A stretch of 57,109 nucleotides of DNA. It comes from Opitutaceae bacterium (GTDB lineage Bacteria > Verrucomicrobiota > Verrucomicrobiia > Opitutales > Opitutaceae). Both the position numbers and the translations under genes were made by a program. The stretch covers positions 1 to 57,109 of the forward strand of contig PLTZ01000050.1 of NCBI GenBank assembly GCA_003164715.1, given 5' to 3'. The notes beneath the pieces were generated by a model. It searched no databases and had not been told where the DNA came from. It saw only the letters and a program-made list of their open reading frames with translations. Positions 32,126 through 45,981 of the stretch are shown here, in pieces (positions within the stretch are counted from its first letter, which is position 1; every line of letters starts with the position of its first letter).

Positions 32126-32152
32126 TAGGCGCTGCTTCGCGAGTGGCGCCTA
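32126..32152. terminator. Bidirectional terminator-like hairpin at the end of the TonB-like operon
   Basis: TAGGCGC (32126-32132) and GCGCCTA (32146-32152) are perfect arms; inside them CTT/GAG can extend the stem around CGC. It overlaps the stop codon of the last operon gene and lies 33 bases after the stop of the converging exported-protein gene. Confidence 0.5.
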
Positions 32153-33433
32153 CATCGCCAGTTGATTGAGATTCACCGCCGCGGTGCCCTCGACCGGCTT
32201 GCCGAGTTCGAGCGCCGGCTTGAAGCGGATGCTCTTTACGACCGACATGAGATACGGATCGGCGATCTTCTGCGTGCAGGCCGTGTCAGCGTAGGGTTCG
32301 TCGGCCAGGCCGTCCTTCGAGACCCTTACGTAGAACGTGCCCGCGTAACTCCCGTTCGCGAGGCGTGCGGGCAGGTCCGCCGGCAATTTCCCCATGACGG
32401 CCACGGCGGGCAGCGTCTCGCCCTTGTGGGCGCCGAGGTACTCCATCTTGACGTACTCGAAGGCCTCGTCGCGGGTCAGCTCGACGCGCTTGGACGAGAC
32501 GTTGGTCGCAACCTCCACGCCCTTGTTGTAGACGTGGAGCTGAAAGTCGATCAGGTCGAAGTTGAAGGGAAACCCTCCCTCGACGAAATGCACCTTCGTA
32601 GGGCGGGCGTCTATCGGGTCAAGCGACTTTGCGTACACGAGGTTCTGGACGGTCCCCTCCTTGGTGCCGGCCGGGTGGAACTTCGTCATCGTGACGACGT
32701 AGGGGTTGTGCAGCGGCCGCGTCGACGAGATCTCGAACTCCACGTCCACGCCGTCGTAACCCTGCGAGTGTGCCTCCTGACCTCCCATCGAGTAATCCGA
32801 TCCGACCCCCCCTGCTGCCGTGCTCACGCCCTGCTGCGCCGTCTGCAGTGCATGAACCAGCTCCGGCCCCAGCGTGCCAGGGGGCGGGGCGCCGGGCCCG
32901 CCGGCCGTCCTCGTGTTGATGCCCATCTCCGTCGCCGATATCGCGCCGTTCTGGACCGCGGTCGCCTGGTTCAAGGCGGCGTGGAAATCCGCGTTCTGGA
33001 CCGCGGTCTGCGACAGCGACCTCGTCCTCAGAGCCACCGGATCATTGGCTTCCGTATAGCCGCGCACGCTCTTAAGGTCCGCAATGGTGGCGGAGACTTC
33101 CGTGAGCTTGAGCGTGGGGGTGATCCTGATGTTGAGGGGCCCAGCCTTCGTGGAAACGACCCTCTGCTGGCCGCCCACCTGGATCACCCACGAGCTGCCG
33201 ACCACGTCCTTCACGGTAAAGAGATCCCTCTCCTGGCCGATGGAGATGTCGGCACCCATGAAGAGCGTATGGGTCTTCGCGGACTCGACCGTGACCTTGT
33301 CCATGGTCACAGCCTTGTCGTCCGCCGTGCCGGCGGGCAGAGGAACAGCGCCGGCCGCAAGCGCGAGGGCCGGGAGAAGTGACTTGCGAAGCGATGCCTT
33401 CGTCGGAAAACGAAGCCTTTGGGATATATTCAT
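32150..33433 (-). CDS. Exported protein ending a Ttp/TonB-like operon, unknown family
   Basis: A 427-residue protein with a signal peptide (LRKSLLPALALAAGAVPLPA). The mature N-terminal half is beta-rich (AKTHTLFMGADISIGQERDL) with an Ala/Gln-rich middle. The last 90 residues (ARLANGSYAGTFYVRVSKDG; SVVKSIRFKPALELGKPVEG) follow the strand-helix-strand rhythm of TonB C-terminal domains, which contact outer-membrane receptors. It starts with ATGA overlapping the TPR gene stop, so it is translationally coupled and belongs to the operon as its seventh and last gene. Vibrio-type operons as I recall them have no such gene. A periplasmic TonB partner is the best guess. Confidence 0.72.
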   Translation of the reverse strand: MNISQRLRFPTKASLRKSLLPALALAAGAVPLPAGTADDKAVTMDKVTVESAKTHTLFMGADISIGQERDLFTVKDVVGSSWVIQVGGQQRVVSTKAGPLNIRITPTLKLTEVSATIADLKSVRGYTEANDPVALRTRSLSQTAVQNADFHAALNQATAVQNGAISATEMGINTRTAGGPGAPPPGTLGPELVHALQTAQQGVSTAAGGVGSDYSMGGQEAHSQGYDGVDVEFEISSTRPLHNPYVVTMTKFHPAGTKEGTVQNLVYAKSLDPIDARPTKVHFVEGGFPFNFDLIDFQLHVYNKGVEVATNVSSKRVELTRDEAFEYVKMEYLGAHKGETLPAVAVMGKLPADLPARLANGSYAGTFYVRVSKDGLADEPYADTACTQKIADPYLMSVVKSIRFKPALELGKPVEGTAAVNLNQLAM

Positions 33434-34776
33434 GGGTTGGTCTGGCCGTCCTTCACGACCAATGACTTCACGCGGACGAGGAAGTCCTCGACCGCGTCTG
33501 TCTTTTCGATGCTGAGCGCCTTCTCCAGGTATTCGACGCTCTTGGCGTAATGCCGGTTCTTGAGCTCGATATTGGCCAGCTCGAGGCTGGCGACATAGGT
33601 GCTGCTGGCGACGTGGTAGGCCTCCTCGAAGGCGAGGGTCGCCCGGGGTACGTCATCGTCGGAGTCATAGGCCCGGCCGAGGCTGACGAGGGCCTTGCCG
33701 TTCATGGGATCGATCTTCAGCAGCAGCTCCAGCTCGCGGCGGGCCTCCGGCCATTTCCTTTCCGCGGTGTAAAGGTCCGCACGGGTCTGGAGCAATGCCA
33801 CGCTCGCGGCATCGCTGCCCGGTGTGCCGAACCTGTCCAGCACGTGCTCGGCGTCCTGAAGCCTGCCGGCATAGACCAGGACCTGGGCGTAGTGGAGCAG
33901 CTTCTGGCCGCCCATCTCCGGCGAGGCGACGAGCACCCTGTGATAGATCTCCGCCGCCTCGGGAACCAGGTTCTGCTCGGCGTAGAGGTCCCCGAGTATC
34001 GTGAGCTCCTCGGTGGTGGCGACGCCGGTTCCCGAGGCGGTCTCAAGGAGCACAGTCGCCTCCACCTTGCGGTTCTCGGCGAGCAGGATGTTCGCGTAGG
34101 CAAGCCAGTACCGTGCGTCACTCGGCCGCTCCTTGATGAGGTTCTTCACCAGGGATTCGGCGCGGGTGAACTGCTTTCCGTCGATGCAGATCCCGAGGAG
34201 CCCCTCCTTCCAGTCCACATTCGAGGGATCTCCGCTGAGCGCCTGCATGTACGCCATCTCGGCCGAGACGAGATCCCCCTCCTTCTGGAGGCTGTATCCC
34301 AGGAGCCCGAAGGTCGTGGAGTCGCGGTCGCCGAGCCCCACGGCCCTTGAGAAGCAGGGCACCGCCTCTGCGTACCGGGCGGACGAATAGTAGAGGATCC
34401 CCAGGTTCACCCACGCCCGCAGGAAGGTCGGGAAGCGCTTCACCGAGCTCCTGTAGTTGGCCTCCGCCTTGTCGTTCTCCCCCGCCGCGTAGTAGGCGTT
34501 GCCAAGGATGAACTGGAACGCCGGGCTCGGCACCTCCTTGTCTGAGCTCATCGCCTCAAGAAGCTTCACCGCGAAGGAGGGGTTGGACGAGAGCATGGTC
34601 ACGACCTTCTGGTAGAGGGCGTACTCCTCCTCCGTCATCTCAGGCTCGCGCTCCTTGAGGAACGAGTTTGACTCGTTGATGATGCGCTTCGGATCAAGCT
34701 TGGGCTCGGAGGCGAATGCGGGGCCCAGGAGCGCGGCCGCGAGCGAGACAACGAGGAGAATCTTTGGGGTTTTCAT
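33430..34776 (-). CDS. Periplasmic TPR protein of the Ttp/TonB-like operon
   Basis: A 448-residue exported protein: signal peptide (MKTPKILLVVSLAAALLGPA), then about ten TPR repeats (for example FILGNAYYAAGENDKAEANY, NLGILYYSSARYAEAVPCF, SLGRAYDSDDDVPRATLAF). In Vibrio TonB2 operons a TPR protein follows tonB2 and aids energy transfer; position and order match here. Start ATG 34776 lies three bases after the TonB-like stop. It overlaps the next gene by four bases. Its likely role is scaffold binding of TonB or of receptors in the periplasm. Confidence 0.85.
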   Translation of the reverse strand: MKTPKILLVVSLAAALLGPAFASEPKLDPKRIINESNSFLKEREPEMTEEEYALYQKVVTMLSSNPSFAVKLLEAMSSDKEVPSPAFQFILGNAYYAAGENDKAEANYRSSVKRFPTFLRAWVNLGILYYSSARYAEAVPCFSRAVGLGDRDSTTFGLLGYSLQKEGDLVSAEMAYMQALSGDPSNVDWKEGLLGICIDGKQFTRAESLVKNLIKERPSDARYWLAYANILLAENRKVEATVLLETASGTGVATTEELTILGDLYAEQNLVPEAAEIYHRVLVASPEMGGQKLLHYAQVLVYAGRLQDAEHVLDRFGTPGSDAASVALLQTRADLYTAERKWPEARRELELLLKIDPMNGKALVSLGRAYDSDDDVPRATLAFEEAYHVASSTYVASLELANIELKNRHYAKSVEYLEKALSIEKTDAVEDFLVRVKSLVVKDGQTNP

Positions 34777-34779
34777 GGC

Positions 34780-35514
34780 CTAAATCGTGAAGGGCGAGCC
34801 GCTCGTCCATTTGTACCAGACCAGCTGCTGCACCATGCAGCGCACCTTCTTCCCCTTCCTGATCGCCGGGCTGAACTGCCATTCGTCCCGGACGCACTCG
34901 AGGACGATGCCGTCAAACTTCGCGTTGCCCGAGGGCCTCATCACACGGATGCTCGTCACCGCCCCCTCGGTGTCGATGACCAGAAGCAGCGTGACGCGAA
35001 GGGACTCCGCGTTGTCGCGGATGACGCTCGGCACCCGAGCGATCGTCTTCACCACGGCCAGGGGGGGCTGATCCACCTCGCTCTGCTGGTAGATGTGCTG
35101 AAACTCGCCCGTGCTGCCGGTCTTCGGACTCAGGTCGGACATGAGCTGGCCGAATTGGATGGTCGCCCGGGGGGGCAGATCGGCAGGGGGCATCAGCTTG
35201 CTCAGATCCGGGGGAACCACCGACAGCTTCACGGGGCTGTCGGACGCACCGATGTCGATGCCCGTCAGCGGAACGGTGGCCTCAATCGGCTCGGAATGAT
35301 CCTCGGGCCTCGGCGGCGGGGGTTCGGAGACGGCGGACACCGCCCGAAGATCCTCGATCTCCGTGGGCACTTCGACCGTCCTCACCATCTCGAAGTGCGC
35401 GATTCCCATGAAGAGGAAGAAGGTGAGGCCCGCCCCCAGGGACACGTAGAGCGCCTCGTCGCCAAGCTGCCCGGCGCGGCTCCTGAACCTGGGGATGGAT
35501 GCGGCGTCGGCCAT
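34780..35514 (-). CDS. TonB-like energy transducer
   Basis: A 244-residue protein anchored by one N-terminal membrane helix (DEALYVSLGAGLTFFLFMGI). A short proline stretch (SEPPPPRPEDHSEP) and a periplasmic linker precede a TonB C-terminal fold (VIRDNAESLRVTLLLVIDTE; GNAKFDGIVLECVRDEWQFS). It carries proton-motive energy from the ExbB/ExbD complex to outer-membrane receptors. ATG 35514 lies ten bases after the exbD stop; a start at 35553 would overlap exbD. Short proline region and a TPR partner are typical of TonB2-type rather than TonB1-type systems. Confidence 0.88.
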   Translation of the reverse strand: MADAASIPRFRSRAGQLGDEALYVSLGAGLTFFLFMGIAHFEMVRTVEVPTEIEDLRAVSAVSEPPPPRPEDHSEPIEATVPLTGIDIGASDSPVKLSVVPPDLSKLMPPADLPPRATIQFGQLMSDLSPKTGSTGEFQHIYQQSEVDQPPLAVVKTIARVPSVIRDNAESLRVTLLLVIDTEGAVTSIRVMRPSGNAKFDGIVLECVRDEWQFSPAIRKGKKVRCMVQQLVWYKWTSGSPFTI

Positions 35515-35524
35515 CTGAGGGAGA

Positions 35525-35938
35525 TCAGGGTTTCTCCAGGTGAGTGGTTGCAAACTCCACGTGCTGGATCCCGGAGCGCTTCGCCTCCGAATACACGGCC
35601 GCGAATATCCCCAGGTTCGAGGAACGGTCCCCGCGGATGATCAGCGTCGGCACGCGCCCGATGGCCGCCTGCTTGACCACTGCGGCGACCTGGTCCGTGC
35701 GGATTTCCTGGCCGTCGAAATAGATGCGGTTGTCCGCCGTGATCGCGATGAGGAGCGCGTTCTGGTCGCCGCTCAGCGAGCCGCTGACGTCCGGCTTCTC
35801 GACCTCGACGCCGGGGTCGTTGATGAACGCGCTGCTGATCATCAGGAAGATGACGAGCACCATGATGCAGTCGACCATCGGCACCATGTCGATGTGGGTC
35901 GCCTCGAAACGGCTGCGCCCTATGTTTTTTCCAATCAT
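35525..35938 (-). CDS. exbD: ExbD/TolR family protein
   Basis: A 137-residue protein with one membrane segment (DMVPMVDCIMVLVIFLMIS) carrying the conserved Asp in MVDCIM that takes part in proton flow, then a periplasmic domain (ALLIAITADNRIYFDGQEI, PTLIIRGDRSSNLGIF). It forms the ion-conducting complex with ExbB. ATG overlaps the exbB stop as ATGA. Length is standard. Confidence 0.92.
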   Translation of the reverse strand: MIGKNIGRSRFEATHIDMVPMVDCIMVLVIFLMISSAFINDPGVEVEKPDVSGSLSGDQNALLIAITADNRIYFDGQEIRTDQVAAVVKQAAIGRVPTLIIRGDRSSNLGIFAAVYSEAKRSGIQHVEFATTHLEKP

Positions 35939-36432
35939 GTTGATACGCCGAGCCAGACGCTGCGTTCAATTCCGTTCAGCTTCTGCAGGTACCTTCTCAT
36001 GCTGCCGTTGGCGAGGTGAAGGACCATGAGCGCCGGAATGGCCACGACGAGACCCGATTCCGTGGCCACAAGCACCTCCGAGATCCCCCGCGCCAGCCCC
36101 TCCATCGTCTTCTCCATCGAGTGCCCCGAGAGGCTCTCGAAGGTCGTCACCATCCCGCTCACCGTGCCAAGGAGCCCGAGCAGCGGTGCCGCGGCGATCA
36201 TGGCGCCCAGCGCTATCCGCTGCTGGCTGAACGACTCCTGGATCTCCTCCCGCGCCCGCCTCAGCTCCGGCAGGTGCCTCTCCTGAGCCGATCCGCGGCG
36301 GTCGAGTTCGCGGCTGGACCTCCGAATCGAGATGAGCAGCTTGAAGCACCGCGAATAAAGGACGACGGACAGGCTGAGGATCGCGATCATCACGGGCCCT
36401 CCCCGCTCGACGAGCTCGATGAGGGGCTTCAT
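35935..36432 (-). CDS. ExbB/TolQ/MotA family proton channel protein
   Basis: A 165-residue short ExbB: three membrane segments, with the signature GAMIAAAPLLGLLGTVSGMV and VLVATESGLVVAIPALMVLH. It is shorter than E. coli ExbB (about 240) and matches the ExbB2-type proteins. It couples to ExbD in the inner membrane. ATG overlaps the preceding TtpC-like stop by four bases (ATGA) and its own stop overlaps exbD likewise. Confidence 0.9.
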   Translation of the reverse strand: MKPLIELVERGGPVMIAILSLSVVLYSRCFKLLISIRRSSRELDRRGSAQERHLPELRRAREEIQESFSQQRIALGAMIAAAPLLGLLGTVSGMVTTFESLSGHSMEKTMEGLARGISEVLVATESGLVVAIPALMVLHLANGSMRRYLQKLNGIERSVWLGVST

Positions 36433-37850
36433 ACGGAGGGCGCCTTCTCCCCGTCCTTCGCGGTCTCGTTGGCGGTCACAAACTCCAGCGCATAGCGCTC
36501 GAGCGTCGACAGGTTCCTCTGGATGCGGTGCGCCAGGAACCCGTGGGCAATCAGCGTCGGTATGGCCACGATGAGACCCAGCTCGGTGGCGACCAGCACC
36601 TCGGAAATTCCGCTGGCCAGTTTGCCGGCGTTGCCGGTGCCGAAGACCGTGATCAGCGCAAAGGTCCGGACCATGCCGACCACGGTGCCCAGCAGGCCCA
36701 TGAGGGGCGCCGCCGTGGCGATGACGGCGAGCAGCGGGAGCCTGCGCTCGTAATGGAGCCTCTGGCGCAGCAGCACCGATTGCAGGTGCTCCTCCAGAAT
36801 GTCCTTGGAGCCGTCGGCATACTCCAGTCCGACCTGGAATATCTCGCGCACCGGCGCGCTGAGCGTCTTGACGGCCTGCTCAACCTGCGACCGGGATCCC
36901 GCGGACACCTTCGCTAGGAACGCGTGCACCACCTCGGGCGGGTCGATCGCAAGAAGGGAGAGGTCGCGAAGCTTCTGGCCGATCATTGCCAGCGAAAGCA
37001 GCCCGACGGCGATGATCGCGTAGGCGACGGGGCCGCCCTTCTGGATGTGGTCGAAGACCGTGCCCTTTGTCTCCTTCAGGCGCAAGGCCTTGCCCCCCGA
37101 GGCGTCGGCGATGATCGTCGCCGGCTTGCCCTGAAAGAACGCGGAGGCGTCCTGGGGCTTCCACGAAGGGAGCCTGTAGGTCACGGGATAGGCGGACCCC
37201 GCGCGAGGCCTGGCCGTCCCGGCGCCGGTCCCGTCGTCCTGCAGGAAGTAGGTTTCCGGTCCGAGGAAGGCGAACGTGCCCTTGATCACCTGGTTGCTCC
37301 CCTCGATGAGCGAGCTCCCGGCCGCCGCGTAGCCACCCAGGGACCGCTGCGTGCGCGCCAGGAGGAACTCCGCGACGTCGACGGCGGACTGGGCGGTCGA
37401 GACGGAGGACTCGTCGTCGAGCTTCTGCTCGAGCGCCTGAATGCGGTCGGAGAGCAGCTGGCCTTCGCCGGGCGCCAGGCTTTCGTCGAAGGCCACGATG
37501 CCGTCGTGGGCGAGCGTGCTGATGTAGGCGGAATTCTTCCGCGTCGCATCCAGCTCCATCAGGACCTTCCTGCGCTGCTCGGAATAGTCCTCCTTGCCCG
37601 CCTCGAGGCGTTCAATCTGGCTTTGCGCGGCAATGATCCGGTCCTCGGTCAGGCGCAGCTCCTTGAGCAGCGGCGCCTTTTCGTCCGCGATGCTCTTGCG
37701 GGCCGTGTTCAGCTCGTCGGCTGCCTTTCGCAGCCGCTCGCCGTAGTCCGCCGTCGCGCGCTTCATCGCGTCGTCGAAGGTCTCCTCGGCGCGGACGGTC
37801 GCCGTGAGGAGGAAGACTGACACCAGCGCTGGAAGGAGTCGGGTGTTCAT
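36429..37850 (-). CDS. TtpC-like protein: coiled coil plus MotA/TolQ/ExbB domain
   Basis: A 473-residue protein with a signal peptide (MNTRLLPALVSVFLLTATVR). It continues as a long periplasmic coiled coil (about residues 25-150, RKSIADEKAPLLKELRLTED). The C-terminal half is a MotA/TolQ/ExbB proton-channel domain: segments near 275-297, GLLGTVVGMVRTFALI near 390, and VLVATELGLIVAIPTLIAH near 430. This build is that of TtpC (VC1547-type), a second ExbB-like protein needed by TonB2 systems. It is the second gene of the operon, six bases after the DUF3450 gene. Confidence 0.88.
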   Translation of the reverse strand: MNTRLLPALVSVFLLTATVRAEETFDDAMKRATADYGERLRKAADELNTARKSIADEKAPLLKELRLTEDRIIAAQSQIERLEAGKEDYSEQRRKVLMELDATRKNSAYISTLAHDGIVAFDESLAPGEGQLLSDRIQALEQKLDDESSVSTAQSAVDVAEFLLARTQRSLGGYAAAGSSLIEGSNQVIKGTFAFLGPETYFLQDDGTGAGTARPRAGSAYPVTYRLPSWKPQDASAFFQGKPATIIADASGGKALRLKETKGTVFDHIQKGGPVAYAIIAVGLLSLAMIGQKLRDLSLLAIDPPEVVHAFLAKVSAGSRSQVEQAVKTLSAPVREIFQVGLEYADGSKDILEEHLQSVLLRQRLHYERRLPLLAVIATAAPLMGLLGTVVGMVRTFALITVFGTGNAGKLASGISEVLVATELGLIVAIPTLIAHGFLAHRIQRNLSTLERYALEFVTANETAKDGEKAPSV

Positions 37851-37856
37851 TCTGGC

Positions 37857-38654
37857 TCAGTTCTTGAGGTTTTCCGCCACGGCCTGTCCGAGCACCGCCG
37901 GCACGGCGACGAAGTCCGGATCGGCCTTGTCGTTGTACACCGCCATGAGGTTCACGACCGGGCGGACCGCGGCGGGACTCGGGTCCCACTGCCATCCCCG
38001 GGCCCCGGGCGCCCCGTACCATGCCTTCCCCGCCGCGCGGTCGAGCGCGTAGGCGTGGCTCAACCCCCAGTAGATGACCTCAAGCGATTTCGCCCCCTGC
38101 TCGCCGCTGATCGTGAGCACCTCGTCGCCACAGGTCACCGTTCGGTTGAACAGCGCGCAGCGGTTGAGGACCGTCATGGCCAGCTGCATGCGCTCGCCCT
38201 GGGCGAGGCCCGCGTTCGCAAGGCTTCGATAGGGGAGTTCCAGGGCCTCCGACAGGCGGGGCGGCAGCGAGGGGCGCATCTCGACCAGCTTAGCAACCAG
38301 CGCCTTGATCCGGGCGTCCGCCGCATGCAGGTCGTCGCCCGCGGCCTTGTCCTTGGCCTGCAAGGTCTCGAACTCCTCGCGGTCCTTGGCCGTCGACGCC
38401 TTGAGGAGGTCGCTCTTCTCCTCGAGCGACTGGGCGCGCTCCTTCAGGCCGTTGATCGTCGACTCAAGAAGCGGCTTCTCCGACACCCACGCGCCTTCGA
38501 TGCGCGAGGTCTCCAGTCGGCTCTTGATCCAGTCGCTTGCGGCCTTCTCGCCCGGCGCAAGCGGGTCGGCGGCGGAATCGGCGCCGAAGGCGGCCGCTAG
38601 AAGGAAAAGAGCCGGCAGGAAACGCCAGGCGGGACGCAATGAAGGCATATTCAT
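37857..38654 (-). CDS. DUF3450 periplasmic coiled-coil protein, first operon gene
   Basis: A 265-residue exported protein. Signal peptide (MPSLRPAWRFLPALFLLAAA) then a long helix (LEEKSDLLKASTAKDREEFE) and the family's VEMRPSLPPRLSEALELPYR block near residue 130, and a globular C-terminal part with aromatic residues (SLEVIYWGLSHAYALDR). DUF3450 proteins precede TtpC in Vibrio and other Gram-negatives. ATG 38654 was chosen over the frame start at 38717. A second ATG at 38648 is possible. The promoter is the sigma-54 element near 38797-38813. Confidence 0.85.
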   Translation of the reverse strand: MNMPSLRPAWRFLPALFLLAAAFGADSAADPLAPGEKAASDWIKSRLETSRIEGAWVSEKPLLESTINGLKERAQSLEEKSDLLKASTAKDREEFETLQAKDKAAGDDLHAADARIKALVAKLVEMRPSLPPRLSEALELPYRSLANAGLAQGERMQLAMTVLNRCALFNRTVTCGDEVLTISGEQGAKSLEVIYWGLSHAYALDRAAGKAWYGAPGARGWQWDPSPAAVRPVVNLMAVYNDKADPDFVAVPAVLGQAVAENLKN

Positions 38655-38717: not shown

Positions 38718-38796
38718 TGCAGGACTATTTCCATGCCCGGGTTGCTGGGGGTAACGAAAAAAAACCTATGAGGCATGGGGGTGCCATTACTGCCTC

Positions 38797-38814
38797 TTGC
38801 AGGCTTTGTGCCAT
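38797..38814 (-). promoter_or_regulatory. Sigma-54 (-24/-12) promoter for the TonB-like operon
   Basis: Read on the minus strand: TGGCAC-AAAGCC-TGCA. The GG (38811-38812) and GC (38799-38800) are separated by exactly ten bases, and TGGCAC matches the -24 consensus. Transcription would start near 38787, about 130 bases before the DUF3450 ATG. A sigma-54 activator gene is adjacent. Confidence 0.7.
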
Positions 38815-38828
38815 TCGATCCGGATCGA
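38815..38828. promoter_or_regulatory. 14-base perfect palindrome beside the sigma-54 promoter
   Basis: TCGATCCGGATCGA is self-complementary and sits directly upstream of the -24 element of the minus-strand promoter. Activator sites usually lie farther away, so it may bind a different factor, or the regulator as a repressor. Confidence 0.35.
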
Positions 38829-39037
38829 TGCTAAGGCGTTTGAGCAAAGCATATAGCGACTCCGGGGCGAATGCGCGAGCTTCCTAGGCTGGAATCCGGT
38901 GGTTGCGTTCACCCGCTTTCGGCCGGCGCCGCCGCGCGCATTTGGACGTAGTCAACCAGCGCCGGCTCCGCGGGCTCCGCCGGCCCGTTGCGAATAATGT
39001 TGATGCGCGTGCGCGCAAACCTCGCATTGGTGGGGCC

Positions 39038-40435
39038 ATGGCTGTCGCTGCTGAGCCCCCCGCCGGATGCGAAGTTCTTCTGCTTGAAGATGACTCCGTC
39101 CTCCGAAGAAGGCTGACTGCGCACCTTCGCAGCCTCGGGGCCGAGGTGACCGAGGTCTCAACGATCGAGAAGGCGCGCGCGGCGCTATCCGGGCTGTATT
39201 TCGATTTCGCGCTCGTCGACCTCCACCTGCCGGACGGCGAGGCCCTGGAACTGCTCCGGGAAGGCGCGTTCTCGGAGAACACGGGCGTGGTCGTGATGAC
39301 GGCGTTTGGCGGTATCAAGGATGCGGTCGAGGCCATGCGCCAGGGAGCTGGAGACTATCTCACCAAGCCGTTCGAGCCGGACGAGCTTCCCATAGCGTTC
39401 ATTCGGTGCCGCGAGAAGCGCGGGATCGCGCGGCGGGAGGAGTTTCGCTCCGGCGAACACGCGTCAGGCGAAAGCGCCGAGCTCTTCTTCGGAGAGAGCC
39501 TCAGCGCAATCCGCGGCAAGCTCGACATGATCCTCTCATCGGAGCGCAGACTCGAGAAGAACCTTCCCCCAATCCTTATCGAGGGCGAGACGGGGACCGG
39601 AAAAAGCCTCCTAGCCGGCTGGCTGCACCGGCAGGGCCCGCGGGGCTCCCGGCCGTTCATCAAGGTGAACTGCGCGGCCCTGCCCGAGGCACTCGCCGAA
39701 TCCGAGCTGTTCGGACACGAGCGCGGGGCGTTCACGGATGCCAGGACCGCGCGAATCGGCCTGTTCGAGGCGGCCGACGGAGGCACCCTGTTGCTGGACG
39801 ACATTGGAACGCTCGCCCCGACGTCCCAGGCCAAGGTGCTGGCGGTCGTCGAGGACCACACCATACGGCGCCTCGGCGCGACCAAGGAGATCGGCGTGGA
39901 TGTCCGGCTGATCGCCGCGTCGAACGAGCCGCTTTCCGATCTCGTCAAGGCCGGCTCGTTTAGGGAGGACCTTTATCACCGCCTCCATCTCCTTCATCTG
40001 ACGCTGCCGCCCCTGCGGGAGCGCGGATTGGATATACTCGCGCTGGCCAAGCACCTGCTGGAGCGCATCGCCCGGCGTCACCGGCTGAAGGATATGTCAT
40101 TCTCGCCCGCCGGGGAATCGCGCCTGCTGGCCTACGGCTGGCCCGGAAACGCCAGGGAACTTGCGCATGTCATCGAAGGGGAGCTCATCTTTGCCCGCGG
40201 ACACGTCCTGGAACTTGAGAGCCTCGGCGCGCCGCCGCCCCACGCGGTGGCAGGATGGCGAAATCCCATTTGGCGCGTTCCGGAGGAGGGGTTCACAATC
40301 GACTCAGTCATCAACGATCTCATCGACGAGGTGCTGCGGGAGACCGGCCACAACATTTCCGCCACGGCCAGGCGCCTGGGAGTCACCCGAGAATTCCTCC
40401 GTTACCGGCTAAACCAATCGAAGACACGCGAGTAG
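39038..40435 (+). CDS. Sigma-54-dependent response regulator (NtrC family)
   Basis: A 465-residue transcription activator. The receiver (residues 8-125) has EDD, phospho-acceptor D61 in ALVDLHLPDG, VVMTAFGG and LTKPFEP. The AAA+ domain has Walker A GETGTGKS, sigma-54 loop RGAFTDA (usual GAFTGA) and Walker B GGTLLLDDIG (usual LDEIG). An arginine-rich second region (LPPLRERGLDILALAKHLLE) and a Fis-type helix-turn-helix (HNISATARRLGVTREFLRYR) follow. ATG 39038 was chosen because homology starts there; the open frame reaches back to 38903. Sigma-54 promoters lie on both sides, so the adjacent operons are the probable targets and the downstream kinase the probable partner. Confidence 0.9.
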   Translation: MAVAAEPPAGCEVLLLEDDSVLRRRLTAHLRSLGAEVTEVSTIEKARAALSGLYFDFALVDLHLPDGEALELLREGAFSENTGVVVMTAFGGIKDAVEAMRQGAGDYLTKPFEPDELPIAFIRCREKRGIARREEFRSGEHASGESAELFFGESLSAIRGKLDMILSSERRLEKNLPPILIEGETGTGKSLLAGWLHRQGPRGSRPFIKVNCAALPEALAESELFGHERGAFTDARTARIGLFEAADGGTLLLDDIGTLAPTSQAKVLAVVEDHTIRRLGATKEIGVDVRLIAASNEPLSDLVKAGSFREDLYHRLHLLHLTLPPLRERGLDILALAKHLLERIARRHRLKDMSFSPAGESRLLAYGWPGNARELAHVIEGELIFARGHVLELESLGAPPPHAVAGWRNPIWRVPEEGFTIDSVINDLIDEVLRETGHNISATARRLGVTREFLRYRLNQSKTRE

Positions 40436-40623
40436 GACGCCCACACGCTCGGGATGCCCGTCCCGGATTTGAAGGCGAGGCAGCTTGCACCACACCGTTC
40501 CCATTCCCCAGAGCCCCCATGGCGTGCGCCTTCAACCATTTCCCTGGGCAGCACCTACCGGCCCGGATCTGCACAATCTGGTAAGGTGATGATTGAACCT
40601 TTCTTGTGAGAATCATGCCTGAA

Positions 40624-40640
40624 TTGGCACCCGGAATGCA
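40624..40640 (+). promoter_or_regulatory. Sigma-54 promoter for the secreted-protein/kinase operon
   Basis: TTGGCAC-CCGGA-ATGCA: GG (40626-40627) and GC (40638-40639) are ten bases apart, and the -24 box is a full TTGGCAC. The start would be near 40651, 44 bases before the ATG at 40695. Confidence 0.75.
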
Positions 40641-40694: not shown

Positions 40695-42386
40695 ATGACG
40701 TTTCGAGCAGCCGGCACGAGAGTCCCCTACCCGCCTTGCTTGGCGCTGGTTCTCGTGGTGTTTGCTGCCGTTGCGGGCCTTTCGGCAGCGCAGGCGCAAA
40801 CCACAGCCCCGGAATCCGCGGTTGGCGATCACGGGCTTCAGGGGGCGGCAAATTCCTATCTTCCCCAGCCGCTCAGGGACAGGTTCGACCCGGTCCGGTT
40901 CATGAACGCCTTCGCGTCCCACTACTACCTCCACCCTGAAAACCCCGCCGCGCCCCAGTTCGTCTTCTTCCCACCGGTTCCCCCACCGCTCGATTCGGAG
41001 CCTCCCCTCCTGGCCCCGTACGACCCGGGACCGGCCGCGCCAGCGGAGCTTGAGGCGTTTGTCGGCGAAACCTTCTATCCGTTGTTCGGCGCCAGGCTCG
41101 CGTCGGGCGATCTCCCAAAGCCGATGCGCGCGCGCATCGTGGCCTACCGGGAGTCCAAGGTCGGCCTCCAAGAGGCGCTGCGCTCGCAGATCCTGGCCCT
41201 CAAGGATGCCGATCCCGATGCGCGGGCGAGGCAATTGGAGGGCCTCGCAAGCCAGCAGGTGCCAAAGATCCTGGAGCTGGAGGCAGCGGCAGAGCAACTT
41301 CGCGCCGACTTGCGCCCGGCTCGCGCCTTGGGCCTCCAGGTGGGAGGCACCGATCCCGGCGCGCGCCTTGGGCGCCGGGTGCAACCTTTACGCGACACGC
41401 CGATGGACCCCGTCGGCCTCGCGCATGAGTCCGATGCGATAAAGGGTGCGGCATTCTTTCAGGAGGGCCTCTCGCTGCCGCAAAGGAGACTGCTCATGGA
41501 GACGGCTGCCGAGCTGGAATCGAGGATCAATCCGAATTCCGTCGCCATCCGGGTCGAATCCGGGATGCGACTCCTCTTCTTCTCTCCCGAATCCTCCCGA
41601 ATACCGATCCCGCTGAACCTTCAGGAGCCGCTGGCGGGCACCGTCAGCCAGTACCTCGCCGCAAAGGACACCCTAAAGGCCGAGCTCTGCGACGCGCTCG
41701 CGGGTACTGCCAGTGCGCCCGAAGACGCGCGCAGGGAAACCCTGGCAAGGCTGGCCCTGGCGCAAGCTCCCGGTTTTGCCCGCGTCGAAGCCCTGGCGGA
41801 GGAGGTTCGCCTTGGGTTGGCGGCCATGCCGAACGCAAAGGGCCCCCCTGGACCCATGCGGCTCCCACCGGAGCTGGCCTCGCGCATTTCCGATTACCGC
41901 AAGCACAAGCTGGAGCTCCTAAAGACGCTGCGCGCCTTGCTCGTCGCCCCCTCTCCCAGGGCCGAGCCGACCCGCGGCCCGAATGCGGCCGAGCAAACGG
42001 ACGCAAGCGGCGGAACCCTGGCGTGGATGCACGACGGTTCGACCCGGACGGAGATTCAATCGAACGAACTGCGGGTCTCCGTCGAGGAGTTCGACCACCG
42101 GCAGAACGAGCTCATCTCCGCACTCAACACTGAGGAGGCGGGGATTCGGGCGGCCCTTGCCGACTACGCCAGGTCCTCAGGCGGCCCCCTGGACATCAAG
42201 TCTGTAAACGACTTGCTGAGGAACTTCGAGGATGCCCGCCTGCGGCAGGAGATCTGGGACAGGTACCGGGACTACCGGGCCGCGGTCCTGCTGCCCGGCC
42301 TTCCCACCGCACAGCGACGCCTGCTCTTCGACGCGGCGACCGAGCAGCTGGCACTCCCCCTTCCCGGCGGCGAGCGAATCAACTGA
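40695..42386 (+). CDS. Secreted helical-repeat protein upstream of a histidine kinase
   Basis: A 563-residue exported protein, family unknown. Signal peptide at about residues 12-35 (LALVLVVFAAVAGLSAAQA). The mature part is helical with internal repeats: LPQRRLLMETAAELESRI near residue 260 and AQRRLLFDAATEQLAL near 540; and PxxLxxRIxxYRxxKxxLxxxLR-type units (MRARIVAYRESKVGLQEALR; LASRISDYRKHKLELLKTLR). A Pro-rich stretch follows the N-terminal FASHYYLHPENP segment. It is 20 bases upstream of the kinase, under its own sigma-54 promoter, so it is probably a periplasmic partner, sensor or substrate of the regulated system. Confidence 0.75.
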   Translation: MTFRAAGTRVPYPPCLALVLVVFAAVAGLSAAQAQTTAPESAVGDHGLQGAANSYLPQPLRDRFDPVRFMNAFASHYYLHPENPAAPQFVFFPPVPPPLDSEPPLLAPYDPGPAAPAELEAFVGETFYPLFGARLASGDLPKPMRARIVAYRESKVGLQEALRSQILALKDADPDARARQLEGLASQQVPKILELEAAAEQLRADLRPARALGLQVGGTDPGARLGRRVQPLRDTPMDPVGLAHESDAIKGAAFFQEGLSLPQRRLLMETAAELESRINPNSVAIRVESGMRLLFFSPESSRIPIPLNLQEPLAGTVSQYLAAKDTLKAELCDALAGTASAPEDARRETLARLALAQAPGFARVEALAEEVRLGLAAMPNAKGPPGPMRLPPELASRISDYRKHKLELLKTLRALLVAPSPRAEPTRGPNAAEQTDASGGTLAWMHDGSTRTEIQSNELRVSVEEFDHRQNELISALNTEEAGIRAALADYARSSGGPLDIKSVNDLLRNFEDARLRQEIWDRYRDYRAAVLLPGLPTAQRRLLFDAATEQLALPLPGGERIN

Positions 42387-42406: not shown

Positions 42407-43768
42407 ATGCCCCGGCTCAAGCTAGAATACTCAATCGCCGCGCTGTGCACGGGGGCCCTGCTGCTCGCCATCTTCGCGGCGCTGGTGATTTGGATCCGGT
42501 CGGACCTTCGCGACGAGATTCACCTGAAGATCATCGAGCGCGACGCCGCGGTCCTGTACCCGATGGCCCTTCAGCAGCTGGCCGACAGCTCGACAAGCGC
42601 GCCCCCTGGGTCCACCAGCTCGCTCACGGCGCTGCTCACGAGCGCCCGCCAGAAAGGGATGCTTGCCGTCGCCGTGTTCGACGGAGACGGCAACACCGTC
42701 GAATCCGTGCCCTCCACCCTGCTCTTCGTCGAGCTTCCGACGTCCGACTACCTCAAGCTCCAGGGCGGAGCACCCATCAGCAGGTATCATCCCGCGTTCC
42801 CGCTTGACCAGTATTTTGCCGGGGTTTCATCCGCGCAGCCGCAAACCCCCGTGCTCGAGGTGCTGCTGCCGCTGCCCGGCCCGGGCTCGTCGAAGCCGCA
42901 GGGATTCGTGCGCTACTACATCGACGCCCGGCCGCTTTCGAGCGAGCTTGCCAACATTGACGTCCGGATTGACCGGCAAACCGCCGTCACCCTGGTCGTC
43001 GGCGCGGTCCTGATCGCCGTGGTCATGACAGGTGCCGCGTTCAGCGTGCATCGCGCCCAGAGGATCGTCGCCGAGCGCAACGAGCGGCTCACGCGGGCGA
43101 ACTTCGAGCTCACGCTTGCGTCCAAGGCGTCCGCGGTCGGACAGATCACTTCGCACCTAATCCACGGCCTCCAGGGGTCGGTCGAGGGACTGCACGCCGT
43201 GATGGCGGGTCGCAAGGCGGATCCCTCCAACCCGGCCTGGGAGTCGGCGGCCGACTACACCGAGCGCCTGCAGACCATGATCCGGGAGACGGTCTCGCTG
43301 CTGAGCGACGCGAGCGCCAGCGCCACGTATGAGCTCTCCGGCCGCGAGCTCGCGGAGACGGTCCGCGAGAGAAACAAGGTGGCCGCCGCGGAAAAGGGCG
43401 TGGAGCTGGAGGTCAACGACGGATTCGCGGCCAACACGGACAGCCACCGCGGCAGCCTGCTCTGCCTCATCGCCAACAACCTGGTGCACAACGCGATTCT
43501 CGCGACCGAACCGGGCAAGAAGGTTTACGTCTCCTTTGTGGACGCAAGCTGGGCCATCGTCCTTACCGTGCGGGACGAGGGCTCGGGCATTCCTGAATCC
43601 ATGCAGAAGCATCTTTTTAAGCCGGGCCGCAGCGGGCGGCCGGGAGGCACCGGTCTGGGGCTGGCCATCAGCCAGCTCTTGGCGCGCCAAATCGGCGCGG
43701 AAATGGTCCTCCTGTCAACCGGCGCCGGTGGCACCACCTTCAGGGTCACGCTGCCCCACAAAGATTGA
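42407..43768 (+). CDS. Membrane sensor histidine kinase
   Basis: A 453-residue kinase. Two membrane helices (residues 9-29 and 194-214) flank a periplasmic sensing domain of about 160 residues with no recognised fold. The dimerisation helix carries the phospho-acceptor His in VGQITSHLIHGLQGSVEGL, probably H253 (H250 is the alternative). ATP-binding motifs: N box LIANNLVHNAIL, G1 DEGSGIPES, G2 GGTGLGLAIS. It probably phosphorylates the NtrC-type regulator encoded upstream. It is cotranscribed with the secreted repeat protein and followed by convergent mntR. Confidence 0.9.
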   Translation: MPRLKLEYSIAALCTGALLLAIFAALVIWIRSDLRDEIHLKIIERDAAVLYPMALQQLADSSTSAPPGSTSSLTALLTSARQKGMLAVAVFDGDGNTVESVPSTLLFVELPTSDYLKLQGGAPISRYHPAFPLDQYFAGVSSAQPQTPVLEVLLPLPGPGSSKPQGFVRYYIDARPLSSELANIDVRIDRQTAVTLVVGAVLIAVVMTGAAFSVHRAQRIVAERNERLTRANFELTLASKASAVGQITSHLIHGLQGSVEGLHAVMAGRKADPSNPAWESAADYTERLQTMIRETVSLLSDASASATYELSGRELAETVRERNKVAAAEKGVELEVNDGFAANTDSHRGSLLCLIANNLVHNAILATEPGKKVYVSFVDASWAIVLTVRDEGSGIPESMQKHLFKPGRSGRPGGTGLGLAISQLLARQIGAEMVLLSTGAGGTTFRVTLPHKD

Positions 43769-43804: not shown

Positions 43805-44464
43805 TCAGAGGGGCCTCACGTCGATCTTCGCGGCCTCCGGAAGGCCGAGCGTGGCCTCGCCCTCCTTCAGCTCGCACCGCACGATGCCGCTCGTGTGGTC
43901 GCGCTCGCGCACCCGCACGCGCGCGCCGGGCTTGAGCCCGGTGCGCTGGATGAACTCAAGGAACGGCGGGCTCTGGTCAAGAATGCGCTCCACGCGCAGC
44001 GGCCGCTGCACCTCGCAGGTCGCCAGCGTCGCCCCCTTGCCGCGGTCGAGCGCGGGCGCCTTGGGGCTCGGAATCGGGTCCCCGTGCGGATCCGAGGTGG
44101 GATGGCCCAGGATGGCGTCGATGCGCAGCAGCACCCGGTCCGAGAGGGCGTGCTCAAGGGCCTCCGCCTCCTCGTGCACTTCCTTCCAGTCCATCTTGAG
44201 CACCTGGACGAGGAAGGTCTCGATCAGCCGGTGCTTGCGCACCACGGCGAGCGCGACCGCCCGGCCCTCCGCCGTCAGGCGGACGCCCTCGCGCGGCTGG
44301 TGCTCGAGCAGACCGCGGGCGGCCATCGACTTCACCATCGTGGTGATCGTCCCCGGCGTGACCCCCAGCGCCTCCGCAAGCGTTCCCGTCGCCACCACCG
44401 CGTCCTTGTCCGAGGAGTGGACGAGAATGGCCTTGAGGTAGTTTTCGACCGTGCTCGTCGGCAT
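43805..44464 (-). CDS. mntR: DtxR/MntR-family metal-dependent repressor
   Basis: A 219-residue regulator: N-terminal winged helix (VENYLKAILVHSSDKDAVVA; LAEALGVTPGTITTMVKSMA), a metal-binding dimerisation domain (HRLIETFLVQVLKMDWKEVH, HALSDRVLLRIDAIL) and a C-terminal FeoA/SH3-like domain (LKPGARVRVRERDHTSGIVR). The three-domain length fits DtxR/IdeR or long MntR proteins. ATG 44464 was chosen because the HTH begins directly after it; the frame opens at 44524. It lies divergent to the Nramp manganese transporter gene, so Mn-responsive repression of that gene is the best reading. Confidence 0.88.
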   Translation of the reverse strand: MPTSTVENYLKAILVHSSDKDAVVATGTLAEALGVTPGTITTMVKSMAARGLLEHQPREGVRLTAEGRAVALAVVRKHRLIETFLVQVLKMDWKEVHEEAEALEHALSDRVLLRIDAILGHPTSDPHGDPIPSPKAPALDRGKGATLATCEVQRPLRVERILDQSPPFLEFIQRTGLKPGARVRVRERDHTSGIVRCELKEGEATLGLPEAAKIDVRPL

Positions 44465-44495
44465 TGCTTGAAGGATACCCGGCGGAATTTTGAAA

Positions 44496-44525
44496 ACAAA
44501 TATATTTTGTCTTTGATTAATCAAA
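44496..44525. promoter_or_regulatory. Two palindromes between mntR and mntH (candidate operator)
   Basis: TTTGATTAATCAAA at 44512-44525 is a perfect 14-base palindrome, and the interrupted ACAAATATATTTTGT at 44496-44510 is nearly one. They lie 48 bases upstream of the mntR ATG in a markedly AT-rich island. Such AT-rich inverted repeats are typical of MntR/DtxR sites, though no exact published consensus is matched. Confidence 0.55.
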
Positions 44526-44709
44526 TACTCGTTTTCTATATATCACAGCCATAAATTCTAGTAATCAATCACTGGAGCTTCCCGAGCCGGCGACCGCACC
44601 CCCTGCGGGTGCCGTCTCGCTCGAGGGCTTACACGGCAGCGTCGCGCTGCCGTCCCCCGCGGCGCACCCCTGGCGCCAGTACCTCGCCTTTGCCGGACCG
44701 GCTCTCCTC

Positions 44710-45981
44710 GTGAGCGTCGGCTACATGGATCCCGGCAACTGGGCGACCGACCTGCAGGCGGGGGCCCAGTTCAAGTACACGCTGCTCTGGGTCGTCGGGC
44801 TCTCCAGCGCGATGGCCGTCTTCCTGCAGATCATCGCCGCCCGCCTGGGCATCGTCACGGGCAAGGACCTGGCCCAGTGCTGCCGCGACTATCTGCCGGC
44901 ATGGACGCGGTGGCCCAACTACCTGAGCTGCGAGCTCGCGATCGCCGCGTGCGACCTCGCCGAGGTCCTGGGAAGCGCAGTCGCCCTCCACCTCCTGTTC
45001 CCGCGCCTGTCCCTTCTGCTTGCGGTGATGATCACGGCGCTCGACGTGCTGGTGCTCCTGTCGCTCCAGCGCCTCGGCATGCGACTTATCGAGGCCGTCG
45101 TTCTGGTCCTGATTGCGACCATCGGGGTGTGCTATTTCATCGAGATCTTCGTGCTGCCTCAGACGCGGCCGAGCTTCCCCGAGATGGCGCGCTGGCTCGT
45201 AGCCCCGGACCTGCCCGCCTTCTTTCGGAGCAGGGACCTGGTCTACCTGGCGATCGGCATCATCGGGGCGACGGTGATGCCGCATAACCTCTACCTGCAC
45301 TCGGCGCTCGTGCAAACCCGGAAGCTCAAGAAGGACGATGCATCCGTGCGCCGGGCGGTGCGGTACAACACGATCGACACGTCGGTGGCGCTCACGGTCG
45401 CGTTTTTCGTCAACGCCGCCATCCTCGTTCTTGCCGCGGTCGTCTTCTACGGGCATGACCGGGTGACGCTGCCGTCGGGCCAGGTCATACCATTCACTTC
45501 CGACTCGGACTGGATCCAGGTCGCTTTTGTCACGCTGGCTCCGCTCGTCGGGAAGGTTGCCGCGAGCCTGCTCTTCGCGGTCGCGCTGCTAGCGAGCGGC
45601 CAGAGCAGCACGATCACGGGCACCCTGGCGGGGCAGGTCGTGATGGAGGGGTTCATGCACTGGCGGATAGCCCCGTGGCTGAGGCGCACGATTACCCGCC
45701 TCTGCGCCATTGTGCCGGCGGCCATCCTTATTTCCCTTCGAGGCGACAACAGCGTCACGGACCTCCTGACGCTAAGCCAGGTGGTCCTGGCGATCCAGCT
45801 GCCTCTGGCGATGGTCCCGCTCCTCGCCTTTGCGGGATCGACGCGGCGGATGGGCAACGGGCGGATCGGCGGATTTCTGCTCGCTGCCGGCTGGGCCTCG
45901 TGCCTGCTGATCACGGCCCTCGACATCTACGGTCTGCCCGGGGCGATGCACGACGCCGTGAGCGTCTTCACGGGCCGCTGA
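44710..45981 (+). CDS. mntH: Nramp-family Mn2+/Fe2+ transporter
   Basis: A proton-coupled divalent-metal importer with about eleven membrane helices. The metal site of helix 1, GYMDPGNWATDLQAG, and of helix 6, GATVMPHNLYLHSAL, are intact. Only one standard start codon precedes it: GTG 44710, placed in the middle of helix 1. The frame stays open from 44521 and encodes family-like residues (WRQYLAFAGPALLVSVGYMD), so the real start probably lies upstream, with CTG 44572 or another rare codon as candidates, or it was lost. MntR-type regulation is indicated by the divergent repressor gene. Confidence 0.85.
   Translation: MSVGYMDPGNWATDLQAGAQFKYTLLWVVGLSSAMAVFLQIIAARLGIVTGKDLAQCCRDYLPAWTRWPNYLSCELAIAACDLAEVLGSAVALHLLFPRLSLLLAVMITALDVLVLLSLQRLGMRLIEAVVLVLIATIGVCYFIEIFVLPQTRPSFPEMARWLVAPDLPAFFRSRDLVYLAIGIIGATVMPHNLYLHSALVQTRKLKKDDASVRRAVRYNTIDTSVALTVAFFVNAAILVLAAVVFYGHDRVTLPSGQVIPFTSDSDWIQVAFVTLAPLVGKVAASLLFAVALLASGQSSTITGTLAGQVVMEGFMHWRIAPWLRRTITRLCAIVPAAILISLRGDNSVTDLLTLSQVVLAIQLPLAMVPLLAFAGSTRRMGNGRIGGFLLAAGWASCLLITALDIYGLPGAMHDAVSVFTGR

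What the first reader, a model, noticed from the sequence alone, without database searches (positions are those of the whole stretch)
38797..38814. Sigma-54 promoter in front of the TonB-like operon
TGGCAC-N6-TGCA on the minus strand has GG and GC ten bases apart, the strict sigma-54 spacing, 130 bases upstream of the DUF3450 start. Of the TGGCAC/GTGCCA occurrences I noted in the window, only two have GG-N10-GC spacing, and both lie close to the sigma-54 regulator gene.
Basis: seen in the sequence. Interest (0 to 1): 0.65.

Follow-up and report, generated by a model that had tools for sequence, protein, structure and literature searches.

The report
Enhancer-driven promoter of a Ton motor
In a family of uncultured soil bacteria, an operon for a membrane motor appears to be switched on by a special promoter (sigma-54) with two upstream docking sites for a neighbouring two-component regulator, and the same switch also sits in front of the sensor genes and several secreted proteins.

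Summary
The site is there: minus strand 38813-38798, TGGCACAAAGCCTGCA, strict GG-N10-GC. By itself the motif is no more than chance (2 of 20 TGGCAC have the spacing, 3.5 expected). Comparison settles it. In 9 of 9 intact loci (own included) where the NtrC-like regulator RR lies divergently beside the DUF3450-TtpC-ExbB-ExbD-TonB-TPR operon, a strict -24/-12 site (at least 10 of 12) faces the operon; of 21 operons without RR beside them, 1 has one. Both states occur within four genera. Two dyads, TGGTTG-N4-CAACCA, lie at fixed distances upstream (94-97 bp in 10 of 10 loci, 137-138 bp in 9 of 10): window 38900-38915 and 38943-38958. The same layout occurs at two or three unlinked genes for secreted beta-propeller proteins in this genome, and at further genes in relatives. 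Signal, the middle protein's role and the motor's task remain inferred. New member of a known kind (sigma-54 two-component regulon); closest in logic to PrsK/PrsR, but not that family.

The parts
38798..38813 (-). sigma-54 -24/-12 promoter (site 1), TGGCACAAAGCCTGCA, of the DUF3450-Ton operon; predicted start about 38787
   Evidence: start position inferred from the -12 rule (recalled)
38900..38915 (.). enhancer dyad 1, TGGTTGCGTTCACCCG (2 mismatches to TGGTTG-N4-CAACCA), 95 bp upstream of the -24 T
38943..38958 (.). enhancer dyad 2, TGGACGTAGTCAACCA (2 mismatches), 138 bp upstream of the -24 T
40625..40640 (+). sigma-54 promoter (site 2), TGGCACCCGGAATGCA, in front of MID-HK; predicted start about 40651
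   Evidence: a strict site of at least 9 of 12 lies there in 7 of 9 intact RR loci (at least 10 in 4) and on the G485 RR contig
40523..40538 (.). weak dyad of site 2, CGTGCGCCTTCAACCA (4 mismatches), 95 bp upstream; one good half only
39038..40435 (+). RR: NtrC-type response regulator (receiver, sigma-54 AAA+, Fis-type HTH; loop GAFTDA)
40695..42386 (+). MID: helical protein of unknown family with a signal-peptide-like start, between RR and HK
42407..43768 (+). HK: histidine kinase; two hydrophobic stretches around a loop, seen in the sequence
37857..38654 (-). DUF3450 (TtpB-like), first gene of the operon
36429..37850 (-). TtpC-like long ExbB
35935..36432 (-). ExbB-like
35525..35938 (-). ExbD-like
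34780..35553 (-). TonB-like (TonB_C)
33430..34776 (-). TPR protein (TtpD-like position)
32150..33433 (-). P33: last gene of the operon, unknown family; homologs are separate targets in two relatives

Best explanation
Site 1 is a sigma-54 promoter that transcribes the DUF3450-TtpC-ExbB-ExbD-TonB-TPR-P33 operon. The membrane kinase HK senses an envelope or external signal (inferred) and phosphorylates RR (inferred); RR binds the two dyads about 95 and 138 bp upstream of the -24 box (about four helical turns apart), the DNA loops, and the AAA+ domain opens the RpoN holoenzyme at site 1 (mechanism from established knowledge of NtrC-type activators). The same RR turns on MID-HK from site 2 (positive feedback, inferred; the dyad there is weak in the window) and a few distant genes with the same layout: secreted beta-propeller/Ig proteins here, P33 homologs and similar secreted proteins in relatives. 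Shown: promoter and dyad sequences, their spacing, their occurrence with RR, and the regulon members by sequence. Inferred: binding, phosphorylation, start site, signal, and what the motor does.
For: Site 9 of 9 with RR beside the operon, 1 of 21 without; each region's own shuffles give such a site in 1.3 to 5.2%. RR linkage changes at least five times on well-supported branches of a 29-row tree; the site goes the same way in 4 of 5 independent pairs, never the other way. Alignment of ten regions shows site 1 and the dyads as conserved blocks; distances 94-97 in 10 of 10 (at most 2 mismatches) and 137-138 in 9 of 10 (at most 3). The dyad, defined on site 1 regions, was then tested at the other 24 exact sigma-54 sites of the genome: 2 have a dyad of at most 2 mismatches within 85-105 bp, both at exactly 95, where 130 such dyads in 3.79 Mb predict about 0.02. 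Pattern dyad-86 bp-promoter: 16 matches in 9 of 19 genomes, 0 for the reversed pattern. Where RR lies elsewhere in the genome, 5 of 7 such loci have a dyad (at most 3 mismatches) 95-97 bp before a strict site just downstream of RR. RpoN found in 30 of 31 genomes.
Against: The -24/-12 match alone is not above chance. Six of the 20 genomes with an unlinked operon do have an RR of 64-68% identity elsewhere (G452, G448, G484, G202, G232, G367), yet their Ton operons lack the site (G484 has a poor one without dyad), so RR in the cell does not suffice to predict control of this operon; and the strict pattern finds nothing in G452 and G448, whose RR loci show it only in a looser form. Site 2 in the window has only a 4-mismatch dyad, G005 site 2 has none, G010 and G299 lack site 2. 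G408 lacks dyad 2 and its site 2 has dyads at 50 and 82. With five independent pairs the tree test cannot reach 0.05. The distance from site 1 to the operon varies (144 bp here, 321 in G005). No expression data.
Confidence: 0.87

Rival explanations
1. Site 1 is a chance match and the operon is read from another promoter.
For: Motif counts in the window are at or below chance.
Against: 9 of 9 versus 1 of 21, and fixed dyad spacing.
Confidence: 0.03
2. Site 1 is a real sigma-54 promoter but is driven by another activator of the cell; the dyads belong to something else.
For: Six proteins in the genome have a strong PF00158 match, RR among them, and four weak ones.
Against: Site and dyads occur where RR is next door; RR loci elsewhere carry the same dyad-promoter layout beside RR; no match of the combined pattern in five genomes where no RR match was found (G003, G006, G022, G486, G258); RR's HTH tail is nearly invariant among orthologs.
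Confidence: 0.07
3. The dyads serve mainly RR's own promoter (autoregulation), and activation of the operon is secondary.
For: Site 1 lies 242-243 bp upstream of RR residue 1 in 7 of 10 loci, a conserved block sits just before the RR start, and G002 keeps both dyads before RR without operon or site 1.
Against: Dyad distances to the -24 box are kept where the distance to RR is not (G028, G449, G408), and dyads also occur at trans promoters with no RR beside them. Both roles can hold together.
Confidence: 0.13
4. Site 1 makes a short leader or small RNA rather than operon mRNA.
For: Variable distance to the operon; a run of eight T 23 to 30 bases after the predicted start (38764-38757).
Against: No terminator called there, no stable fold of 38740-38790 (z -0.3); most other sites of this layout precede coding genes.
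Confidence: 0.05

Closest known systems
PrsK/PrsR/PrsT regulon of PEP-CTERM genes in Proteobacteria (PMC1569441, passages and section 7 read)
   Same: NtrC-like regulator plus membrane kinase, a conserved activator motif followed by a -24/-12 motif, unlinked single genes for secreted proteins; a TPR protein is part of the profile.
   Different: Motif 1 there ends in TTTACA with a mean 62.8-base spacer; here a TGGTTG-N4-CAACCA dyad with about 86 bases, often doubled. RR, HK and TPR miss the PrsR, PrsK and PrsT cut-offs. Targets here include a Ton-like motor operon.
Vibrio TonB2 operon ttpB2-ttpC2-exbB2-exbD2-tonB2-ttpD2 (PMC6957404, passages read)
   Same: Same order: DUF3450, TtpC, ExbB, ExbD, TonB, TPR.
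   Different: In Vibrio vulnificus a putative Fur box and -35/-10 promoter, with iron response; here sigma-54 and an adjacent two-component system, plus P33.
PeuRS two-component system with the peuA-tonB2 operon of V. parahaemolyticus (PMC4141801, passages read)
   Same: Two-component genes next to, and acting on, a TtpC-type Ton operon.
   Different: PeuRS resembles CpxAR/PfeR; no sigma-54 control in the passages seen.
ZraPSR (recalled)
   Same: sigma-54 two-component system with a secreted helical accessory protein.
   Different: MID is far longer and matches no Pfam model for such proteins.

Membership tests
sigma-54 (-24/-12) promoters | GG-N10-GC with TGGCAC..TGC | tested here: met
sigma-54 (-24/-12) promoters | intergenic, facing a gene, conserved in relatives with the activator beside it | tested here: met
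sigma-54 (-24/-12) promoters | activator sites about 100-200 bp upstream of the start | tested here: met
   (sequence only, no binding shown)
sigma-54 (-24/-12) promoters | transcription start 12 bases after GC, lost without rpoN | not testable with these tools
   needs RNA and mutants
NtrC-type response regulators | receiver, PF00158, Fis-type HTH | tested here: met
   PF00072, PF00158, PF02954 over cut-off
NtrC-type response regulators | GAFTGA loop | tested here: inconclusive
   GAFTDA here and in 14 of 16 other RR read (GAFTSA in L160, no match of my pattern in L176); PMC4641369 lists GAFTDA among variants that would keep activity (passages)
PrsK/PrsR/PrsT regulon | RR over the TIGR02915 cut-off, HK over TIGR02916, TPR over TIGR02917 | tested here: not met
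   259.6 of 502.6, 65 of 300, 98.8 of 312.2 bits
PrsK/PrsR/PrsT regulon | targets carry PEP-CTERM | tested here: inconclusive
   ends of the L014, L024 and L012 proteins read by eye only; no model search for PEP-CTERM on the full proteins
TtpC-type Ton systems (Vibrio TonB2-like) | gene set and order DUF3450-TtpC-ExbB-ExbD-TonB-TPR | tested here: met
   Vibrio order from PMC6957404
TtpC-type Ton systems (Vibrio TonB2-like) | energises uptake through outer-membrane receptors | not testable with these tools
   needs mutants
classical ExbB/ExbD/TolQ/TolR equivalogs (NCBIfam) | score over the curated cut-offs | tested here: not met
   all matches below cut-off
ZraP/CpxP/Spy-like accessory (for MID) | Pfam or structural match | tested here: inconclusive
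   25 members scanned without a family shared by more than 2; no solved relative by sequence; no clear fold match

The most novel reading that the evidence does not exclude
The regulon defines a dedicated surface machine: a Ton-like motor with P33 as periplasmic partner that exports or assembles (rather than imports) secreted beta-propeller proteins, with MID in the periplasm reporting the state of that export to HK, so that the motor, its client proteins and its sensor rise together under one sigma-54 enhancer.
Probability: 0.12. Interest if true: 0.8.

Novelty: new member of a known kind. Interest (0 to 1): 0.5.

Why it matters
It gives a testable cis-regulatory layout (promoter, two enhancer dyads, adjacent two-component system, trans targets) in Opitutaceae (Verrucomicrobiota). 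In the paper searches made I saw no description of such an enhancer there (open-licence papers only, searches list 10 of 1,374 and 10 of 133). It ties a TtpC-type Ton motor to named partner genes, so co-regulated client proteins can be tested directly. A 2025 sigma-54 survey that mentions Opitutia says that sigma-54 control of TonB in Flavobacteriia remains unconfirmed (PMC12316311, passages).

Tried and rejected
Palindrome TCGATCCGGATCGA at 38815-38828, next to the -24 box: perfect, but single in the window and not seen at that place in the relatives' upstream regions; set aside. Terminator in the leader: none found; the folded piece begins 3 bases before the predicted start, so pairing with bases further upstream was not tested. 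Second TGGCAC at 38781-38786: spacing one base short; G010 has a second TGGCAC too, at another spacing. Hit count as proof: rejected, no excess in the window.

MID as ZraP/CpxP relative: suggested by its repeated L-S-P-x-Q-R-R-L-L (likeness to LTXXQ is recalled), but no Pfam, PDB-sequence or fold match supports it (Foldseek best E 0.6). P33 fold: best VIA-align Z 8.0, rmsd 2.9, 94 aligned, to a beta-sandwich of a glycosidase, not above the noise the tool describes. TonB box in the P33 N-terminus: not conserved in the homologs. C-terminal domain (CTD) as the mark of the regulon: 31 genes carry it here (counted). Of 27 with upstream DNA, 3 have promoter plus dyad, but my automatic start choice missed the known site of one of them (L014, counted), so it can have missed others.

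A direct search shows RR of 64-68% identity elsewhere in 6 of these 20 genomes (G452, G448, G484, G202, G232, G367), only 48-51% relatives in 5 (G397, G032, G396, G394, G395), and no match at E 1e-90 in 9 (G003, G006, G022, G486, G258, G488, G373, G254, G336; in six or more of these only 63 of the first-look candidates were scored). Counts now speak of RR beside the operon; the main confidence was lowered from 0.88 to 0.87 and the autoregulation rival raised from 0.12 to 0.13.

G373 counts twice (two operons). G484 has only 343 bp upstream. Unlinked operons were scanned 700 bp upstream where the contig allowed. The 16 matches have the 95 bp distance by construction: 5 are site 1, 4 lie before MID (in G491 the -24 GG is broken), 6 are trans genes, 1 (G028:C73, nearest long start 471 bp away) looks like chance. 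In one search dyads were sought only 92-99 bp upstream; 6 of 19 MID loci without the Ton operon have the layout before or upstream of MID (L111, L114, L115, L117, L124, L126; in L111 and L126 the site is far from the chosen MID start), and 3 loci have hits elsewhere (L110, L120, L128), which shows the level of chance; L116 and L125 were not scanned.

Full report
What was claimed and what is there. The minus-strand site at 38813-38798 reads TGGCACAAAGCCTGCA. It has the strict GG-N10-GC spacing and lies 144 bp upstream of the DUF3450 ATG at 38654. Of 20 TGGCAC in the window, two have the spacing, the second at 40625 on the plus strand, in front of the gene after the regulator.

Genome background. 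The genome (G000, 3.79 Mb, 92 contigs) has one RpoN match with an RpoN box ARRTVAKYR. The exact pattern TGGCAC-N6-TGC occurs 26 times. With a simple codon-based ORF picker 17 of 26 are intergenic and 9 coding, against 10.4% intergenic DNA in the window by the same picker. The pattern therefore marks real sites in this genome at a useful rate, and two of the 26 lie within 1.9 kb here. The picker is mine and was trained on genes of this window; it is rough, but the contrast is large, and 11 of 11 control-pattern hits in fetched own DNA were coding.

The neighbourhood. The operon is DUF3450, TtpC-like ExbB, ExbB, ExbD, TonB, TPR and a protein of unknown family, P33. Divergently lie RR (receiver, sigma-54 AAA+ domain, Fis-type HTH), MID (no Pfam family) and a kinase HK. 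RR carries GAFTDA where most activators have GAFTGA; a Desulfovibrio study lists GAFTDA among variants that would keep function (PMC4641369, passages).

Relatives. A search of the family returned 252 genomes: 31 have the DUF3450 gene at E 1e-30 or better and 11 a close MID (E 1e-70). Nine intact loci, the window included, have RR-MID-HK divergent to the operon (G000, G005, G010, G008, G028, G299, G449, G451, G408). All nine have a strict site scoring at least 10 of 12 against TGGCACGNNNNTTGCW facing the operon, G408 with 12 of 12. Of 21 operons without RR beside them, one (G484) has a site of that score, CGGCACGATGCTCGCA, without dyad (Fisher p 7e-7, relatedness ignored). Both states occur in genera g1, g17, g48 and g11. 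On a tree of 29 operons RR linkage changes at least five times on well-supported branches; the site goes the same way in four of five independent pairs and does not differ in one. RpoN is found in 30 of 31 of these genomes, not in G003.

A limit found late. Lack of RR beside the operon is not lack of RR in the genome. A direct search (26 genomes) finds RR of 64-68% identity elsewhere in six of the 20 genomes with an unlinked operon. Seven such RR loci (six genomes' worth plus G491, G232 and G367 by their second copy; L258-L264) were read: five have a strict site just downstream of RR with a dyad of at most 3 mismatches 95-97 bp upstream, two of them (G452, G448) with a second, better dyad at 139; L261 and L262 show none at these limits. 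So RR keeps the same DNA layout next to itself there, and the Ton operon has it only where RR is its neighbour.

Enhancers. An alignment of the region between site 1 and RR in ten loci (the nine and the G485 RR contig) shows two more conserved blocks, both versions of the dyad TGGTTG-N4-CAACCA. From the -24 T to the dyad centre the distance is 94-97 bp in 10 of 10 loci and 137-138 bp in 9 of 10, while most of the region aligns poorly. In the window they are at 38900-38915 and 38943-38958, the only two places in 57 kb with at most 2 mismatches (1.0 expected in shuffles, so again the position, not the count, is telling). Two boxes 42-43 bp apart at this range are what an NtrC-type activator uses (general knowledge).

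Independent test. The dyad was defined on site 1 regions. Tested at the other 24 exact sigma-54 sites of the genome, L012 (contig C48) has dyads at 95 (1 mismatch) and 138 (2), L014 (C57) at 95 (2), and L024 (C88) weaker ones at 93 and 136 (3 each). No other of the 24 has a dyad of at most 2 mismatches near these distances; one coding site has one at 235. The three downstream genes encode secreted proteins with NHL or YVTN-type repeats, an Ig-like domain and a shared C-terminal domain (YVTN, and all domains of L024, are my reading of the sequence). 31 genes here carry that C-terminal domain, so it is not confined to the regulon.

Trans targets in relatives. The pattern dyad-86 bp-promoter with up to 3 mismatches gives 16 matches in 9 of the 19 genomes given, none for the reversed pattern, none in G003, G006, G022, G486 and G258 (no RR match), none in G452 and G448 (RR elsewhere), and none in G005, G408 and G002 (RR present; spacing or mismatches outside the limit, or no site). 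Six are unlinked genes: two P33 homologs (G028, G010), and secreted beta-propeller or C-terminal-domain proteins (G000 twice, G010, G008). That P33 is the last gene of the operon here and a separate target elsewhere is good internal agreement.

Site 2. In front of MID-HK a strict site of at least 9 of 12 occurs in 7 of 9 intact loci and on the G485 RR contig. Its dyads are good in G028, G449, G451 and G485, weak in the window (4 mismatches) and in G008 (3), off place in G408 and absent in G005. Of 19 MID loci without a Ton operon scanned, 6 have dyad plus promoter before or upstream of MID, though only 92-99 bp was allowed and several promoter boxes are imperfect. Over the 31 promoters collected, a dyad of at most 2 mismatches lies at 93-98 bp in 24 and at 135-139 bp in 9, with 3 elsewhere in 20-260 bp; part of this set was chosen by that distance, as told under Tried and rejected.

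How it most likely works. HK (two hydrophobic stretches around a loop of about 160 residues, seen in the sequence) senses something outside the cytoplasm and phosphorylates RR; RR occupies the paired dyads and activates RpoN polymerase at the Ton operon, at MID-HK and at a few secreted-protein genes. The DNA layout is shown; phosphorylation, binding and signal are inferred. MID has a signal-peptide-like start and is mostly helical in the model, and is probably made with HK, so a periplasmic accessory role is likely, but no known family or fold supports a more precise statement.

Comparison. The logic (NtrC-like regulator, kinase, activator motif plus -24/-12 motif before unlinked secreted-protein genes) is that of PrsK/PrsR in Proteobacteria (PMC1569441), but the protein cut-offs are missed and motif and spacer differ. 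The operon matches Vibrio TonB2 in order (PMC6957404, passages), where a Fur box is reported. PeuRS in V. parahaemolyticus is a two-component system of another type beside a TonB2 operon (PMC4141801, passages). Searches for a described sigma-54 enhancer in this group or for sigma-54 control of a TtpC system showed none in their listings; these cover open-licence papers, and several listings were capped.

Verdict. Observation confirmed; interpretation supported and extended. New member of a known kind; of interest because the regulon links a little-known Ton-type motor with candidate client proteins.

Noticed in passing
32150-33433: P33 C-terminus resembles the TonB C-terminal domain in a profile comparison with this operon's TonB (62 columns, E 7e-4, probability 27%) and ends in a strand-strand-helix-strand pattern in the model; the model also has two long helices.
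   Followed up: partly
38980-39037: A block just before the RR start (GAATA..TGTTGA..CTCGCATTG) is conserved in ten loci; possibly RR's own promoter, close enough to the ATG to suggest a leaderless message.
   Followed up: no
L011, G000:C48:141686: An exact sigma-54 site lies in front of a gene that reads like a TonB-dependent receptor, without dyads at 95/138.
   Followed up: partly
L009 and L010, G000:C48:74551 and 79621: Two exact sigma-54 sites flank another activator gene (C48:76470) and precede efflux-like (HlyD-type and ABC) genes by sequence look.
   Followed up: no
L002, L017, L022: Exact sigma-54 sites before genes that read like NuoB, an McsA/UvrB-motif protein and a small heat-shock protein (names by eye).
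   Followed up: no
L012, L014, L024 and 28 further genes of G000: A C-terminal domain (INLSTRAYVG..IAGFVI.G..VLIRAVGPTLA.FGV) recurs in 31 genes of this genome; the relative L195, made almost only of it, has no Pfam match at E 0.01.
   Followed up: partly
L111, L114, L115, L117, L119, L126, L263, L264: RR-MID-HK clusters exist without a Ton operon beside them, and some genomes have more than one MID or RR.
   Followed up: partly
L258, L259 (G452, G448): RR lies away from the Ton operon but has two dyads (96 and 139 bp) and a strict site directly downstream of itself; the gene driven was not identified.
   Followed up: partly
L109:4913-6285: The G299 RR is split between two frames near codon 235: sequencing error or broken gene.
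   Followed up: no
L176 (G002): RR-MID-HK without the Ton operon has both dyads upstream of RR but no site 1, so the dyads there have another use or are relics.
   Followed up: partly
43805-45981: An MntR-like regulator and an NRAMP-like transporter follow HK and stay next to the operon in G003, G006 and G008 (names by sequence look).
   Followed up: no
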